Of a stretch of DNA of 34,691 bases, positions 26,314 to 34,679 are shown in pieces. Under the pieces are notes generated by a model. The model saw nothing but the letters and a program-made list of their open reading frames with translations. It was not told the origin of the DNA and did not search any database. A program made the position numbers and the translations under genes. Within the stretch, counting starts at the first letter, position 1; the number at the start of each line of letters is the position of its first letter. The DNA is from Porphyromonadaceae bacterium. Lineage in GTDB: Bacteria; Bacteroidota; Bacteroidia; Bacteroidales; Porphyromonadaceae. The stretch covers positions 1 through 34,691 of the forward strand of contig JAUMYV010000019.1 of the NCBI GenBank assembly GCA_030528445.1, read 5' to 3'.

Positions 26314-26769
26314 ATGAGGGTTGTTGTACAGAGGTGCTCCAGGGCGGAGCTACATATTGGCGAGGAGCTGAAGTCGAAAATAGGCTATGGATTGGTGGTT
26401 TTGGTCGGTATAGAGGATCGGGATGGTGAGGAGGATGTGCGCTATTTGGCCAAGAAAATAGCGGCTCTGAGAGTCTTCGATGATGAGGCTGGGGTGATGA
26501 ATCGCAGCGTTGTGGAGGCTGGTGGAGATATTCTGCTCGTGAGTCAGTTTACGCTGATGGCATCTACGAAGAAGGGTAATCGCCCAAGCTATATTAGGGC
26601 GTCTCGCCCAGAGATGGCAATCCCGCTGTACGAGAGTTTGGGTAGAGAGCTTGAGGGGTTGCTCTCTAGGCCTATCGCGTATGGGGTCTTCGGGGCAGAT
26701 ATGCAGGTGGGTCTAGTCAACGCGGGGCCAGTTACCATCATCATGGATAGCCACGACAGAGACTTCTAG
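26314..26769 (+). CDS. dtd: D-aminoacyl-tRNA deacylase
   Basis: This is a 152-residue homodimeric proofreading enzyme that hydrolyses D-aminoacyl-tRNA (and Gly-tRNA-Ala). Both family motifs are present: SQFTLMASTKKGNRPSY with the SQxT catalytic element, and the C-terminal NAGPVT (NxGPVT) gate. The start at ATG 26314 (MRVVVQR) matches where the family begins; an ATG four codons upstream (26302) is possible. It follows uvrC closely and probably shares its transcript. No clear terminator is seen after it. Confidence 0.93.
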   Translation: MRVVVQRCSRAELHIGEELKSKIGYGLVVLVGIEDRDGEEDVRYLAKKIAALRVFDDEAGVMNRSVVEAGGDILLVSQFTLMASTKKGNRPSYIRASRPEMAIPLYESLGRELEGLLSRPIAYGVFGADMQVGLVNAGPVTIIMDSHDRDF

Positions 26770-26909
26770 CCTTGTGGCTGTGGAACACTGTGTGTTGAGA
26801 AATAAGGAAGAGTAGATGGTTGTGTCCTTTTTGTTATTTCGGAAGACTAGGTAGTATCGTTTTGTACTTAATACTTGAATCTATCCGCCTGCCTTACTAT
26901 GCAATGCCG

Positions 26910-26940
26910 TTTGAAAAAAGGATTTATTCTCATATCTTTG
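26910..26940 (+). promoter_or_regulatory. Near-perfect promoter in front of the split glycosyltransferase gene
   Basis: TTTG at 26910-26913 and TATCTTTG at 26933-26940 are separated by exactly 19 nt, the best match to the Bacteroidota consensus in this window. The transcript would begin near 26947 and reach ATG 26982 after about 35 nt. It supports the view that the split gene downstream is meant to be expressed. Confidence 0.65.
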
Positions 26941-26981
26941 TGGAAGTATTTTGATGAAAAATATTACTTCTACCACAATAT

Positions 26982-27936
26982 ATGTACTTGACCCAGAAAG
27001 TAAATTGTTTGTTAGGCTTTTTGTGGAAGTCGTTCCTCCCCAAGGCGCCAGATAGGTCGTATTATGAGTCATTACTGCCTCCTCCAGACTTAAGTCATAC
27101 GCGGGGGGGGGGTACCGCATAAGATTCATCAAACCGCTCACTCTAGACAACTCCCGAAAGAGATAGAGGAAAATATTGCCTATCTTCAAGAGTTAAATCC
27201 TGGGTGGAGTCATTCCTTTTATGACGATGCAGAGATTCAAGCCTATCTGAAAAAGAATTATCCCGAAGGGATTTCAGAGTATTTCAATAAGATATCTCCA
27301 AATTATGGGGCTGCAAAAGCAGACTTGTTTCGCTATTTGCTACTTTATCAAGAGGGAGGAGTTTACCTAGACATCAAGAGTTCTTTGACTCAGCCTTTGG
27401 AAAATCATTTACAGCTAGAAGATGAGTTGATATTATCTTACTGGGATAATCTACCAGGTGGACTACAGGAGGGGCTTTGGATCGACCATAAGGAGTATCC
27501 CAATATTCCACGAGGAGAATTAATGCAGTGGATAATTATTAGCAAGCCTAGGCACCCTATGATACGTGAGGTTATCATTCAGGTCCTTGCCAATATAGAC
27601 CATTATAGCCCTTTTACTGAGTCAGGTGGAGCAGGGGAGGGGTTATGGGGAACACTCCGTACGACAGGGCCTATAGCCTACACCCGCTCTTTGGTAGGTT
27701 CGATGTCTACTTATGAGGGGCATTTTCGAATGGTTAATTTGTATCGAGATTGGGGGGTTAAGTATTCTATCTATTCTCAGCCAGGGGAGTTTGCTCATAA
27801 GAAAATACTTAAAAGTGATTATCGCCTGGCATGTAATCCCATTGTGGCTCACCCCATAAAAATGATTCAATGGTTGTCTGTGTCGTTTCTGAAAATGCTG
27901 AGAGACTATCAAAGTGTTCGGATGAGGTTTCTTTAG
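26982..27936 (+). CDS. Phase-variable GT32-type glycosyltransferase, currently out of frame at a G10 tract
   Basis: ATG 26982 opens a frame (MYLTQKVNCLLGFLWKSFLP...) that enters a run of ten Gs at 27103-27112 and stops at 27122 after 46 residues. The glycosyltransferase body (VPHKIHQT, LNPGWSHSFYDD, NYGAAKADLFRYLLL, EGGVYLDIKS) lies in another frame that is open only from 27094, just after a stop at 27091, and has no ATG. Removing one G (or adding two) joins both into one 317-codon protein. Its family is the GT32/Gly_transf_sug group (OCH1-like, capsule and LOS transferases); the DxD-equivalent is D130-I-K. Such enzymes act in the cytosol on lipid-linked or LOS glycans. As sequenced it is OFF. 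A true inactivation or a homopolymer sequencing error is the alternative. It precedes the sialic acid genes and is A+T-richer than its neighbours. Confidence 0.82.
27103..27112 (+). repeat. G10 homopolymer (contingency tract) in the GT32 gene
   Basis: Ten consecutive Gs follow codon 40 of the upstream frame. With nine Gs the reading is R-G-G-V-P-H-K-I-H-Q-T, continuous with the family core. With ten Gs it reads R-G-G-G-T-A-stop. Tracts of this length slip readily during replication. Confidence 0.9.
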
Positions 27937-28365
27937 TTAAATACAATGGTTCTGGTGCGTTACATTTTTACGGTTATTTGTTGGGTGTGATACTTCAGAG
28001 ATAGTATTTGGTAGAGTGCTCCCAAATCATGATAGCTGGTATAGGCTACTTCTGCTATGATTGTGTCCTGTTTTTATTTTGTTGTCATTTAAATCTTTTG
28101 AGGCTTCTAAATATGGCATGCTGAATTGTAAAGTCTTATGATAAATCTGCTAGTACTCCTACTTTATGGTAAGAAACATGTAGATTTTTTATGATTAAAA
28201 GTCTCATAACACTCTGTCGTTATTCAGCTGTCTATCAGGCACACTGAACCAATCTCGTTCACTCTGCAAATTGGTAGACAAAATAGATTGAGAGTGATTC
28301 AATGCGGATTCCCTACTTTTATCATTGTCAGAACAATGGTTGCCCTAGCTGGCTGGTTTGTTTGA
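27937..28365. other. Gene-free A+T-rich spacer
   Basis: 429 bp between the glycosyltransferase gene and the neuA promoter. No ORF with coding character, terminator, repeat or RNA gene is visible. It may be a remnant of insertion of the surface-glycan island. Confidence 0.45.
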
Positions 28366-28397
28366 TTTGTTTATTGTCTGTTCTTAAAATATCTTTG
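28366..28397 (+). promoter_or_regulatory. Promoter of the neuA-sialyltransferase operon (distal)
   Basis: TTTG at 28366-28369 and TATCTTTG at 28390-28397 are separated by 20 nt, an excellent match. The leader to ATG 28580 would be about 175 nt. Confidence 0.6.
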
Positions 28398-28476
28398 CAA
28401 TCTCTCTGTTGGATGTTGGGTTGGTAAATGGAACGTGTGCCCTAGGTATTTGCCTTATGCTTTGGGGCATTATCCC

Positions 28477-28484
28477 TAACTTTG
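28477..28484 (+). promoter_or_regulatory. Second -7 element (TAACTTTG) before neuA (proximal)
   Basis: TAACTTTG matches the -7 consensus and lies 95 nt before neuA. TTTG candidates at 28449-28452 (24-nt spacer) and 28461-28464 (12-nt spacer) are not ideal. It may be a second start site. Confidence 0.35.
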
Positions 28485-28579
28485 TGTTACTGCCCAAGCA
28501 GGCTCGGTATCTAGGCGCTTGTGAGAGCCTCTAGAGGGTCTGGTAGAGCTCACGTACTAATCATTTTAGCAGAAATATT

Positions 28580-29857
28580 ATGAAGAAGATTGCTATCATC
28601 ACAGCCAGATCTGGCTCAAAGGGGTTGCCCAACAAAAATATGCTTATGGCAGAGGGTAAGCCTCTTCTTGCTTACTCCATAGAGGCTGCTCTGGAGGCTG
28701 GGATATTTGACAAGATTATTCTGACGACCGACTCTCAGGAATATATCGATACGCTGTCGCATTACCCCATTGACTTCGTCAAGAGGGCAGGACATCTAGC
28801 GACCGATAAGTCAAGTTCATTTGATGTACTAGAGGATGTCTTGATGCGACCCGAATATGCGGGGTGCGACTATTTCGTTTTGCTGCAGCCGACATCTCCT
28901 CTGCGTACCGCAACCCATATCACGGAGGCTTGCGAGCGGTTTGAGAATCATTGGGAGCGATTCGATTTCCTTGTCTCTGTTTCAGATGCTCATAAGCCCA
29001 CTACGCTAACTCGATGTATAGATGAAGACGAGAGCCTCAAATATTTTGACCTTGATTACTCTCGCTATGCTCGTCAGAACTATGCCCCAGAGTACTCGCC
29101 TAATGGAGCTCTGTTTATGGGCAAACCGCAAGAATATCTCCAGGCGAAGCAATTCTATGGAGCGCGCTGCTTGGCGTATTTTATGGATAAGTCTGTCTCT
29201 ATAGATATTGATGATCGGGATGATTTTGAGCACTTCTATTTTATTCTTCAGCAGCGCAAGCGAGATCAGCTGTTGTATGCACAGGTGCAGAGAGAGGTAA
29301 AGCTCAAGGAGGCTTACTATGGCAAACCCAAAGATATTACCCTACTTGGAGGCTCTCTTCTTGCATTATTTCCCTTGGAAATATGGGGGGGGGTAGAAGA
29401 GCTTCATAATCTAGCTGTTACGGCGGCACGTCTCTCTCAGTACAGAGAACTAGTTCTAGAGCGGGAGGACATCGCTCTATCCGGTATTATCGTTCTAGAC
29501 TTGGGGAGAGATGACCTGCGCAAAGAGGGCAGAACTCCACGAGAGATTGCCCAGGAAGCCAAGGTGCTTGTGGAGCGAATCATGAAGATTAACCCCAAGG
29601 CTGAGATTTATTTACTCGAGTGTCTGAACGCTCTATTCCGCGTCGACTATGATAATAGCAAGGCTCAAGCTTTTAATGAGCAGATGAGGGAGGAGATCAA
29701 GGGCTTGCCTCGGGTGCATTGGGTGGAGCTAAATGAAACGTTTAACAATGAGTATGGTAAGCTGTCTCTAGCCTATACCGATGATGGGCTTAATTTGAAT
29801 CAAGCGGGCTACGAACTTCTTGCAAACAAACTCTCAGCTCTGGTAATAGAAAAATGA
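28580..29857 (+). CDS. neuA: CMP-sialic acid synthetase fused to an SGNH-hydrolase-like domain (NeuA type)
   Basis: The product has 425 residues. Residues 1-230 are the cytidylyltransferase that makes CMP-sialic acid from CTP and sialic acid: ITARSGSKGLPNKN at 7-20, TTDS, LLQPTSPLR, and a Mg/sugar-binding region with YSPNGALF. Residues about 250-425 are an SGNH-like domain as in the NeuA of group B Streptococcus and E. coli K1, where it acts as a sialic acid O-acetylesterase. Here block I is GGS (S259), block III is G309-R-D-D instead of GxND, and the DxxH motif reads D402-G-L-N405, so the catalytic His is replaced and esterase activity is doubtful. A G9 tract at 29385-29393 lies in this domain and is in frame (W269-G-G-V272). 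The next gene overlaps by 4 bp (ATGA), which suggests translational coupling. Confidence 0.92.
   Translation: MKKIAIITARSGSKGLPNKNMLMAEGKPLLAYSIEAALEAGIFDKIILTTDSQEYIDTLSHYPIDFVKRAGHLATDKSSSFDVLEDVLMRPEYAGCDYFVLLQPTSPLRTATHITEACERFENHWERFDFLVSVSDAHKPTTLTRCIDEDESLKYFDLDYSRYARQNYAPEYSPNGALFMGKPQEYLQAKQFYGARCLAYFMDKSVSIDIDDRDDFEHFYFILQQRKRDQLLYAQVQREVKLKEAYYGKPKDITLLGGSLLALFPLEIWGGVEELHNLAVTAARLSQYRELVLEREDIALSGIIVLDLGRDDLRKEGRTPREIAQEAKVLVERIMKINPKAEIYLLECLNALFRVDYDNSKAQAFNEQMREEIKGLPRVHWVELNETFNNEYGKLSLAYTDDGLNLNQAGYELLANKLSALVIEK
29385..29393 (+). repeat. G9 homopolymer inside neuA at the start of the SGNH domain
   Basis: With nine Gs the frame continues. With eight, the codons are TGG GGG GGG TAG, an immediate stop after residue 271. 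With ten, the frame reads W-G-G-G-R-R-A-S-stop. Either slip keeps the full synthetase domain and removes nearly all of the SGNH domain. Confidence 0.92.
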
Positions 29858-30819
29858 ATTTGATTATTTGTGGCTCTCCTTTACAGGTATTGATTGCTGA
29901 GCGTATCATAGATTTACATCCTAATGAGGATTTCTATGGAATTGTATATTGCTACCAACTCCCCCCGAAGCTGGCTTACTACTATGAACGGCTTTCGAGG
30001 AAGTGTGTAAAGTCCCGAATTATATATGGGGATCAAGGTCATTCCAAACTGGGGATTTACAGAGAGATCCTAAAACTCATAGTACTAGGGGCTACTTTAC
30101 CCAAAATAAAGTCCGTTTTCATCGCAAATATAGATATCATTGATGTTTGTATATTTCTCCATAAAGCCTCACGTGGAAATATTTACACTTTTGACGATGG
30201 TAGTATAAACCTTTGCCCAGATGCATTCATGGGTATGGTACGAAAAAAAATAGGAGGTTTTCAACGCATCCTAAGTTGTATTTTCAAAATTCCAACTGCT
30301 GAAGATCTTTTTAGACGTAGTCTTACTCACTACACGCTGTATGATTTGCCTAACGTTTACTCAAATACCATTAAAGTTGAACTCTTTCACAGAGAGAAAG
30401 AAGTAAAAGGGGGTAATAGAGATGCAATACCCAGGGAGGTGCGAACACTTATGTTAGGGCAACCCATATATGAGTATGGTGATGAGGGTGAAAAACTCAA
30501 TATCCAAATAACTGAGAGCGTAATTAATAGTTATCAGATTGAGTGTTATATCCCTCATCCAAGAGAAAAGTATAGAGTTAGCAATGTCGAGTATATCAAC
30601 ACGAACTTGATTTCGGAAGACTACCTCTTGGAGAATTTGGAGCGAGACCCTGGGCTACACTACGTAATTTATACATTCTGCAGTACTACCGCTCTTAATC
30701 TTTTGGGGCATCACAGAATTAAATTCGTTGCTGTAAAACCAAAACTTATTCCATCGCATCTAGAAGAGGTGTATGTTATTTTGGCTAATGCAGGGATACA
30801 GATTGAGAATCAAAAATAA
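29854..30819 (+). CDS. Sialyltransferase of family GT52 (Lst-like)
   Basis: The product has 321 residues. It resembles the Neisseria/Haemophilus LOS alpha-2,3-sialyltransferase Lst along its length: NLIICGSPLQVLIAERI at the N-terminus, YTFDDGSINL (111-120), an LGQP strand (201-204), the CMP-binding/catalytic H235 in PHPREKY, SEDYLLENLERDP, and YTFCSTTALNL. It would use CMP-sialic acid from NeuA to cap surface glycan. The catalytic Asp I recall for Neisseria Lst (in GSPD) is not at the same place here (GQPI), with E207 three residues on, so the linkage and even the sugar may differ. There is no signal peptide; it is probably peripheral at the inner membrane. Its start overlaps neuA by 4 bp, so it is likely coupled to neuA. 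It is clearly A+T-richer than flanking core genes. Confidence 0.85.
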   Translation: MNLIICGSPLQVLIAERIIDLHPNEDFYGIVYCYQLPPKLAYYYERLSRKCVKSRIIYGDQGHSKLGIYREILKLIVLGATLPKIKSVFIANIDIIDVCIFLHKASRGNIYTFDDGSINLCPDAFMGMVRKKIGGFQRILSCIFKIPTAEDLFRRSLTHYTLYDLPNVYSNTIKVELFHREKEVKGGNRDAIPREVRTLMLGQPIYEYGDEGEKLNIQITESVINSYQIECYIPHPREKYRVSNVEYINTNLISEDYLLENLERDPGLHYVIYTFCSTTALNLLGHHRIKFVAVKPKLIPSHLEEVYVILANAGIQIENQK

Positions 30820-34660: not shown

Positions 34661-34679
34661 CCCCCCCCCCACCCCCCCC
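34661..34679 (+). repeat. C10-A-C8 tract at the right edge
   Basis: Ten Cs (34661-34670), one A, then eight Cs (34672-34679) follow an A+T-rich segment 33 nt after mltG. On the other strand this is a G8-T-G10 run. It could be a contingency tract in the promoter or start of a gene beyond the window, which I cannot see. Confidence 0.8.

What the first reader, a model, noticed from the sequence alone, without database searches (positions are those of the whole stretch)
26982..27936. A G10 tract splits a glycosyltransferase gene: probable phase-variable GT32 enzyme in the OFF state
Seen directly: an ATG-started frame with a strong promoter runs into ten Gs and stops at 27122, while the family core (VPHKIHQT onward) is open in another frame with no ATG. 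Exactly nine (or twelve) Gs would join them into a 317-codon protein. Known: poly-G tracts in glycosyltransferase genes are classic contingency loci in Neisseria, Campylobacter and Helicobacter. Such tracts seem much less described in Porphyromonas-like bacteria, where DNA inversions are the better-known switch.
Basis: partly seen in the sequence, partly recalled or inferred. Interest (0 to 1): 0.87.

Follow-up and report, generated by a model that had tools for sequence, protein, structure and literature searches.

The report
Poly-G switch candidate in a glycosyltransferase
A run of ten Gs splits a sugar-transferring enzyme gene of a Porphyromonas-like bacterium and looks like an on/off slippage switch, one of several G-run-bearing surface-sugar genes in the same genome; that the run actually changes length has not been shown.

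Summary
G10 lies at 27103-27112. An ATG frame (26982-27122) runs into it and stops; a 274-residue GT32-type core (27112-27936, PF04488) is open in another frame without a proper start. The upstream piece carries YYESLLP, the N-terminal motif of GT32 paralogues in the same genome, so both pieces most likely form one gene broken at the tract. The GT32, one GT4 and a secreted protease are out of frame exactly at the run. Of all 77 runs of 7-8, nine lie in glycan genes and two break a frame, both in glycan genes. Of 56 long runs examined in congeneric genomes, at most four lie in glycan genes. The sister species has in-frame orthologues of three tract genes without such tracts. Best reading: a lineage-specific set of poly-G slippage (contingency) loci, a classic mechanism that my ten literature searches did not find described for Porphyromonas. 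Length variation, the defining feature, could not be tested; a read error or recent gene decay is not excluded.

The parts
26910..26940 (+). promoter-like element TTTG-N19-TATCTTTG upstream of the split gene
   Evidence: 2 in window, 0.23 expected; Bacteroidota consensus recalled
26982..27122 (+). 5' piece of the glycosyltransferase gene: ATG frame of 46 residues that carries RSYYESLLP and stops just after the tract
   Evidence: motif shared with two GT32 paralogues
27103..27112 (+). G10 homopolymer, candidate slippage tract
27112..27936 (+). GT32-type glycosyltransferase core in the other frame, 274 residues, no ATG
   Evidence: (PF04488 E 7.7e-11)
28366..28397 (+). second promoter-like element, 182 bases upstream of the neuA-like gene
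28580..29857 (+). CMP-sialate/nonulosonate synthetase (residues 4-217) fused to an SGNH/GDSL hydrolase domain (about 250-423); in frame in this assembly
29385..29393 (+). G9 run inside the neuA-like gene, within the hydrolase half
   Evidence: absent from the sister-species orthologue
29854..30819 (+). GT52-family (sialyltransferase-type) glycosyltransferase whose ATG overlaps the neuA-like stop
   Evidence: (PF07922 E 6.8e-45)
34661..34679 (.). C10-A-C8 run downstream of the yceG-like gene, 12 bases before the contig end

Best explanation
The split gene is one GT32-type glycosyltransferase gene with a slippage-prone G10 tract in the variable linker just before the catalytic fold (GT-A in known GT32 enzymes; recalled). 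Slipped-strand mispairing during replication would change the tract by single bases. Only one length in three keeps start codon and catalytic core in one frame, so a population would hold ON and OFF cells; this assembly shows OFF, in which only a 46-residue peptide is made. It belongs to a recently formed set of G-run genes acting mainly on surface glycans. Shown: tract, frame break, the shared N-terminal motif that ties the two pieces together, the company of run-bearing envelope-glycan genes, absence of such runs from three sister orthologues. Inferred: length change, reversibility, the glycan affected.
For: Frame break exactly at the run, no other stop. Upstream YYESLLP equals the C40 paralogue's motif; in about 478,000 six-frame letters of own-genome sequence the motif occurs four times: here, in the two GT32 paralogues, and once on the other strand of the window. 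50 of 56 family-invariant residues kept. Seven runs of 10 or more against 1.35 expected. Envelope-glycan genes hold 5 of 10 own runs of 9 or more, against 9 of all 77 own runs of 7-8 (Fisher p 0.008; 0.016 if two runs in peptidoglycan-precursor genes are counted too) and at most 4 of 56 runs of 9 or more examined in other genomes of the genus (p 0.003). Of runs lying in open frames, 3 of 7 of length 9 or more break the gene (GT32, GT4, protease), against 2 of 69 of length 7-8, both glycan genes (p 0.005). Lengths 9 and 10 are the commonest poly-G lengths in C. jejuni and C. coli (PMC6321876, passages).
Against: No length variation is shown; no sibling genome or reads are held. Runs of 9 or more as a whole are not clearly above chance (p 0.08), and all 26 genomes of the genus have such runs. 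The glycan category was chosen after seeing the tract genes. Two of the ten own runs lie so close to contig ends (C85, C121) that their setting cannot be judged. A further acyltransferase gene of this genome is broken at a short T run without any G tract, and a third GT32 copy at a G7, so plain gene decay happens in such genes. A C11 run in another genome breaks a gene that is not a glycan gene. One of the three broken long-run genes here is a protease, not a glycan gene. A profile search did not recover the short upstream piece by itself.
Confidence: 0.68

Rival explanations
1. Assembly or base-calling error in the homopolymer: the true gene is always in frame and the count of ten is wrong.
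For: Homopolymers of 9-11 are the places where draft assemblies err; the genome is in 134 contigs, one contig ends 12 bases after a C10-A-C8 run and another begins 50 bases before a C9.
Against: Runs of 7-8 rarely break a frame (2 of 69 in open frames), so the assembly is not riddled with such errors at those lengths; four other in-gene runs of 9-10 are in frame. A wrong count would not explain why long runs sit mainly in glycan genes.
Confidence: 0.15
2. Recent pseudogene: the copy was broken by a one-off slip at a G run and is decaying, with no maintained switching.
For: The gene sits at a rearrangement: the sister species has uvrC-dtd and the neuA-GT52-dnaX block on different contigs and no GT32 match. 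Other members of glycan families in this genome are broken at a G7 and at a T6.
Against: The 274-residue core is free of stops and keeps 50 of 56 invariant residues; five different envelope-glycan genes carry runs of 9 or more and three of them are in frame, which one-off decay does not predict.
Confidence: 0.14
3. Transcriptional slippage or ribosomal frameshifting at the G run makes some full-length enzyme in every cell without any DNA change.
For: Homopolymers can slip polymerase or ribosome (general knowledge); the arrangement of the two frames would allow it.
Against: No conserved arrangement in relatives: the five Porphyromonas homologues of other genomes and the C23 paralogue in alignment A1 have no G/C run of 7 or more in the gene and are read in one frame; known bacterial slippage sites are mostly A or T runs (recalled).
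Confidence: 0.03

Closest known systems
Poly-G contingency loci of Campylobacter and Helicobacter (glycosyltransferase, LOS and capsule genes; examples recalled)
   Same: G tract of 9-10 inside a gene, frame set by tract length; several such genes per genome; homologues in related strains may lack the tract (PMC6321876, passages read)
   Different: Bacteroidota instead of Campylobacterota; seven run-bearing genes at 9 or more, against dozens per genome in C. jejuni; no length polymorphism shown
E. coli K1 NeuO, phase-variable O-acetylation of polysialic acid
   Same: Slippage repeats acting on sialic-acid decoration (abstract start of PMC3046976 seen; passage of PMC3090145)
   Different: Here the run is inside the hydrolase half of a NeuA-type fusion protein, not in a separate O-acetyltransferase gene
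Invertible and recombination-type phase variation of Bacteroides and Porphyromonas (capsule promoters, hsdS)
   Same: Stochastic surface or epigenetic variation in the same order (passages of PMC11868660, PMC7394358; PMC5690328 states only that type I systems are phase-variable)
   Different: DNA inversion or recombination, not homopolymer slippage; no pair of inverted repeats was found around the promoter here
Bacteroides fragilis O-acetyltransferase frameshift in a short C run
   Same: Slippage suggested for a polysaccharide-decorating gene in Bacteroidota (PMC3090145, passages)
   Different: A run of four Cs with one additional C; here a G10 tract and a genome-wide set

Membership tests
Poly-G translational contingency locus | G/C homopolymer of 8 or more within a coding sequence | tested here: met
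   G10 at 27103-27112 between two pieces tied together by the family's N-terminal motif
Poly-G translational contingency locus | Tract length decides whether start codon and core share a frame | tested here: met
   The two open frames differ in register exactly at the run
Poly-G translational contingency locus | Tracts in excess over chance and concentrated in surface genes | tested here: met
   7 runs of 10 or more against 1.35 expected; 5 of 10 in envelope-glycan genes against 9 of 77 and at most 4 of 56 in controls. For 9 or more the excess alone is weak (p 0.08) and the category was chosen after the fact
Poly-G translational contingency locus | Tract length varies between cells or isolates | not testable with these tools
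   One genome per species held; no reads
Poly-G translational contingency locus | Reversible change of a phenotype | not testable with these tools
   Needs the organism
GT32 / PF04488 glycosyltransferase | Match to the family profile above its cut-off | tested here: met
   43 bits against cut-off 23; solved relative: initiation-specific alpha-1,6-mannosyltransferase 9n3s, E 6.5e-8
GT32 / PF04488 glycosyltransferase | DXD metal-binding motif | tested here: inconclusive
   All eight aligned members have D-[IL]-K at the GGVYLDIK position, so the second D is absent throughout these members
Invertible-promoter phase variation | Inverted repeats flanking the promoter | tested here: not met
   Only one overlapping palindrome in 26500-28600, at 28524-28541 (repeats of 11 bases or more)

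The most novel reading that the evidence does not exclude
A Porphyromonas lineage has evolved, largely since it split from its sister species, a small poly-G phasome that tunes surface-glycan assembly and decoration (GT32, two GT4, a sialate synthetase/hydrolase fusion, a phosphoethanolamine transferase, O-acyltransferases) and a secreted protease. In the fusion gene the run sits behind the synthetase domain, so slippage would remove the hydrolase while leaving CMP-sialate synthesis, and could also disturb translation of the overlapping GT52 gene.
Probability: 0.42. Interest if true: 0.68.

Novelty: new member of a known kind. Interest (0 to 1): 0.52.

Why it matters
Phase variation in Bacteroidales is usually explained by DNA inversion. 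A poly-G slippage set aimed at surface glycans would add a second route in a genus known from mucosal and oral surfaces, and would show such a set at an early stage: the sister species has three of the same genes without the tracts. It would also mean that single draft genomes misreport the surface glycans of such bacteria.

Tried and rejected
Tract conservation among GT32 homologues: 7 runs of 8 or more occur in 512,652 bases of the 80 fetched loci; in the Porphyromonas loci none lies in the matched gene. Inverted-repeat promoter switch: not seen. A profile search for the upstream piece found only the core, so the case for the upstream piece rests on the YYESLLP motif and its position. Sialic-acid synthesis: no NeuB match in the own genome, which is 93% complete; scavenged sugar is possible, and the best NCBIfam match of the synthetase is PseF, below its cut-off, so the sugar (sialic or pseudaminic acid) is open. 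Tandem repeats of longer period near the gene: none at the score used. Rfam and tRNA searches of the window: nothing.

Limits of the counts. Own runs of 7-8: all 77 of the genome. I first sampled 45 and, on checking, found that the sample had left out runs in contigs C23 and C40, which hold glycan genes, and the later contigs; I fetched the rest and recounted. 69 of 77 lie inside an open frame of 100 residues or more and 8 do not. Runs with 150 or more open bases on both sides count as unbroken; 20 lie nearer a frame end, and I read the frames around all of them: two break a gene (C6 acyltransferase, C40 GT32), one frame (L189) has no Pfam match and may be no gene, and the L196 run seems to lie just before a start. 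Pfam was run on 50 of the frames, the others judged by eye or from alignment A1. The nine counted as glycan genes: three acyltransferase runs, a GT2, a GH92, two runs in one GT4-type gene, the C40 GT32 and a Wzy_C-like protein below its cut-off; two runs in MurB and Mur-ligase genes were left out, and with them the p value is 0.016. The earlier figures with the sample of 45 were 4 of 45 and p 0.006. Runs of 9 or more in other genomes: 56 of 235 examined, after dropping one own-genome locus (L045) and one duplicate (L041); 34 lie in frames of 100 residues or more, 20 of these were scanned with Pfam, and 14, mostly short frames but also L225, L230 and L232, were not. The 4 of 56 are a Polysacc_synt_3 (flippase-type), a Polysacc_synt_2 and a Poly_export protein and, generously, a hexapeptide acetyltransferase.

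Full report
WHAT IS THERE. The window lies in a 2.27 Mb draft genome of 134 contigs, genus Porphyromonas by its named relatives. At 27103-27112 there are ten Gs. An ATG frame from 26982 gives 46 residues and stops at 27122. In another frame 274 residues are open from 27112, with the stop ending at 27936; these match PF04488, 43 bits against a cut-off of 23, and a solved alpha-1,6-mannosyltransferase (9n3s, E 6.5e-8). The first possible start codon in that frame is a TTG at 27325, well inside the core. A promoter-like element of the Bacteroidota type (consensus recalled) lies at 26910-26940.

ONE GENE, NOT TWO. In the genus, 7 of 26 genomes, the own one included, have a GT32 match; the own genome has two further copies, on contigs C23 and C40. 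The C23, C40 and other aligned homologues begin with a motif such as YYEALLP, a short variable linker, and then the IPR-x-x-x-QT strand. The upstream piece here reads RSYYESLLP, identical over seven residues to the C40 copy. In the window (69,378 six-frame letters) and other own-genome loci (408,450 letters) the motif occurs only here, in the two paralogues, and once on the other strand of the window. The run therefore most likely sits in the linker of one gene. Of 56 columns invariant in the other homologues, 50 are kept, and there is no stop, so the core looks intact. A profile built from the homologues found the core but not the short upstream piece.

THE GENOME-WIDE PATTERN. The own genome has 10 G/C runs of 9 or more and 87 of 7 or more. 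A first-order model from the window's composition expects 5.9 runs of 9 or more and 1.35 of 10 or more; 10 and 7 are seen (p 0.08 and 5e-4). It also expects 115.5 of 7 or more, against 87 seen. Seven of the ten lie in genes: this GT32; the neuA-like fusion at 29385; two GT4 genes (C23, C58); an EptA/CptA-like phosphoethanolamine transferase (C72; C run on the coding strand; NCBIfam matches below cut-off); a trypsin-like protease with a T9SS sorting tail (C118); and a protein with HU-like and weak LysM matches (C77; C run on the coding strand). One lies outside genes (C100) and two close to contig ends (C85, C121). Reading the frames on both sides of each run separately, the GT32, the C23 GT4 (its last 48 or so residues lie in another frame) and the C118 protease (its N-terminal, signal-peptide-like piece lies in another frame) are out of register. 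The C58 GT4, the transferase and the C77 protein are in frame, as is the neuA-like gene. Among runs of 7-8, an acyltransferase (C6, G8) and the C40 GT32 (G7) are out of register.

CONTROLS. All 77 own runs of 7-8 were examined. 69 lie in open frames, most of them housekeeping, outer-membrane or transport genes. Nine lie in glycan-related genes, and only two break a gene, both glycan genes. Of 235 runs of 9 or more in the 25 other genomes I examined 56: 20 lie in no frame of 100 residues; others lie in frame in housekeeping genes (chorismate synthase, YidC, LepA, Hsp70); at most four are in glycan genes; and one C11 run breaks a gene that I take, from recall, for a mobile-element protein. The contrast with the own genome (5 of 10) gives Fisher p 0.008 against the runs of 7-8 and 0.003 against the other genomes. 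For broken frames, 3 of 7 against 2 of 69, p 0.005. The category was chosen after the fact, so these values are descriptive.

AGE OF THE TRACTS. The sister genome G015 (UvrC 92% identical) has the block neuA-GT52-dnaX-yaaA-yceG-GT4 in the same order as the window plus contig C58; in the own genome a gene that looks like a GT2 glycosyltransferase stands before the GT4 gene. G015's neuA-like and GT4 genes are open throughout and have no G/C run of 7 or more; nor has the neuA-like gene of the more distant G014. G015's orthologue of the C118 protease (80% identical) is open in one frame and has only G6 there. The simplest reading is that these three runs arose or grew in the window's lineage; loss in the sister is possible for the two not checked in G014. 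G015 has no GT32 match; in the window the GT32 gene lies at the junction between uvrC-dtd and the neuA block, which are on different contigs in G015. G015 has runs of its own in an HsdS-type gene and in a flippase-type gene, both in frame.

HOW IT MOST LIKELY WORKS. Slippage at the run would change its length by single bases; one length in three gives full-length enzyme. In the state seen here only a 46-residue peptide would be made. The neuA-like gene suggests a finer effect: the synthetase domain covers residues 4-217 and the hydrolase domain about 250-423; the run falls near residue 269, so slippage there would leave the synthetase and lose the hydrolase. In group B streptococcus and E. coli K1 a comparable second domain of NeuA is a sialate O-acetylesterase (recalled). 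The GT52 gene overlaps the neuA-like stop (29854), so premature termination may also lower its translation. These steps are inference.

AGAINST. Length variation is not shown. Homopolymer read errors are possible. Decay of glycan genes without G tracts occurs in this genome: a C71 acyltransferase is broken at a short T run. All 26 genomes of the genus have long G/C runs.

WHAT IS KNOWN. In Campylobacter, tracts of eight or more Gs have been shown to switch genes, 9G and 10G are the commonest lengths in C. jejuni and C. coli, and homologues without the tract occur (PMC6321876, passages). For Bacteroides and Porphyromonas, the passages I read concern inversion and recombination (PMC11868660, PMC7394358) or state only that type I restriction systems are phase-variable (PMC5690328). 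Patrick et al. suggested slippage for a short C run in a B. fragilis O-acetyltransferase (PMC3090145, passages). Ten searches listed no paper whose title, or abstract start as shown, reports poly-G phase variation in Porphyromonas; the library holds open-licence papers only. I rate this a new member of a known kind in a genus where I found no description of it.

Noticed in passing
window 29385-29393: G9 run inside a CMP-sialate/nonulosonate synthetase fused to an SGNH hydrolase; the run lies in the hydrolase half and is absent from the sister-species orthologue.
   Followed up: yes
window 34661-34679: C10-A-C8 run 12 bases before the contig end; by synteny with G015 a run-bearing GT4 gene (contig C58) may lie beyond, with an extra gene that looks like a GT2 glycosyltransferase just upstream of it in the own genome.
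   Followed up: partly
L177 3625-3633 (G015:C29): In the sister genome a G9 run (coding strand) lies in frame within a gene matching the type I restriction specificity family (PF01420), a possible phase-variable restriction system.
   Followed up: partly
L026 3017-3026 (G000:C118): G10 separates the N-terminal, signal-peptide-like piece from the body of a trypsin-like protease with a T9SS sorting tail; the orthologue in G015 is open in one frame with G6 at the spot.
   Followed up: yes
L188 1497-1504 (G000:C6): G8 at the point where an Acyl_transf_3 gene changes frame; other acyltransferases have G8 (C41) or G7 (C23) in frame, and one on C71 is broken at a T6.
   Followed up: partly
L170 6539-6546 (G014:C24): In the more distant G014 the gene after the neuA-like one, which resembles the window's GT52 gene, carries a G8 in an open frame.
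   Followed up: no
L025 3271-3281 (G000:C100): G11, the longest G/C run found in the genome, lies outside genes, next to the 3' end of a gene matching Ribosomal_S30AE.
   Followed up: no
window 26816-26839 and 28057-28080: Imperfect 24-base direct repeat (79%) on either side of the GT32 gene, perhaps a trace of its insertion.
   Followed up: no
L046 1499-1509: In another genome of the genus a C11 run breaks the frame of a gene that looks like a mobile-element primase or helicase (by recall), so long runs also break genes that are not glycan genes.
   Followed up: partly
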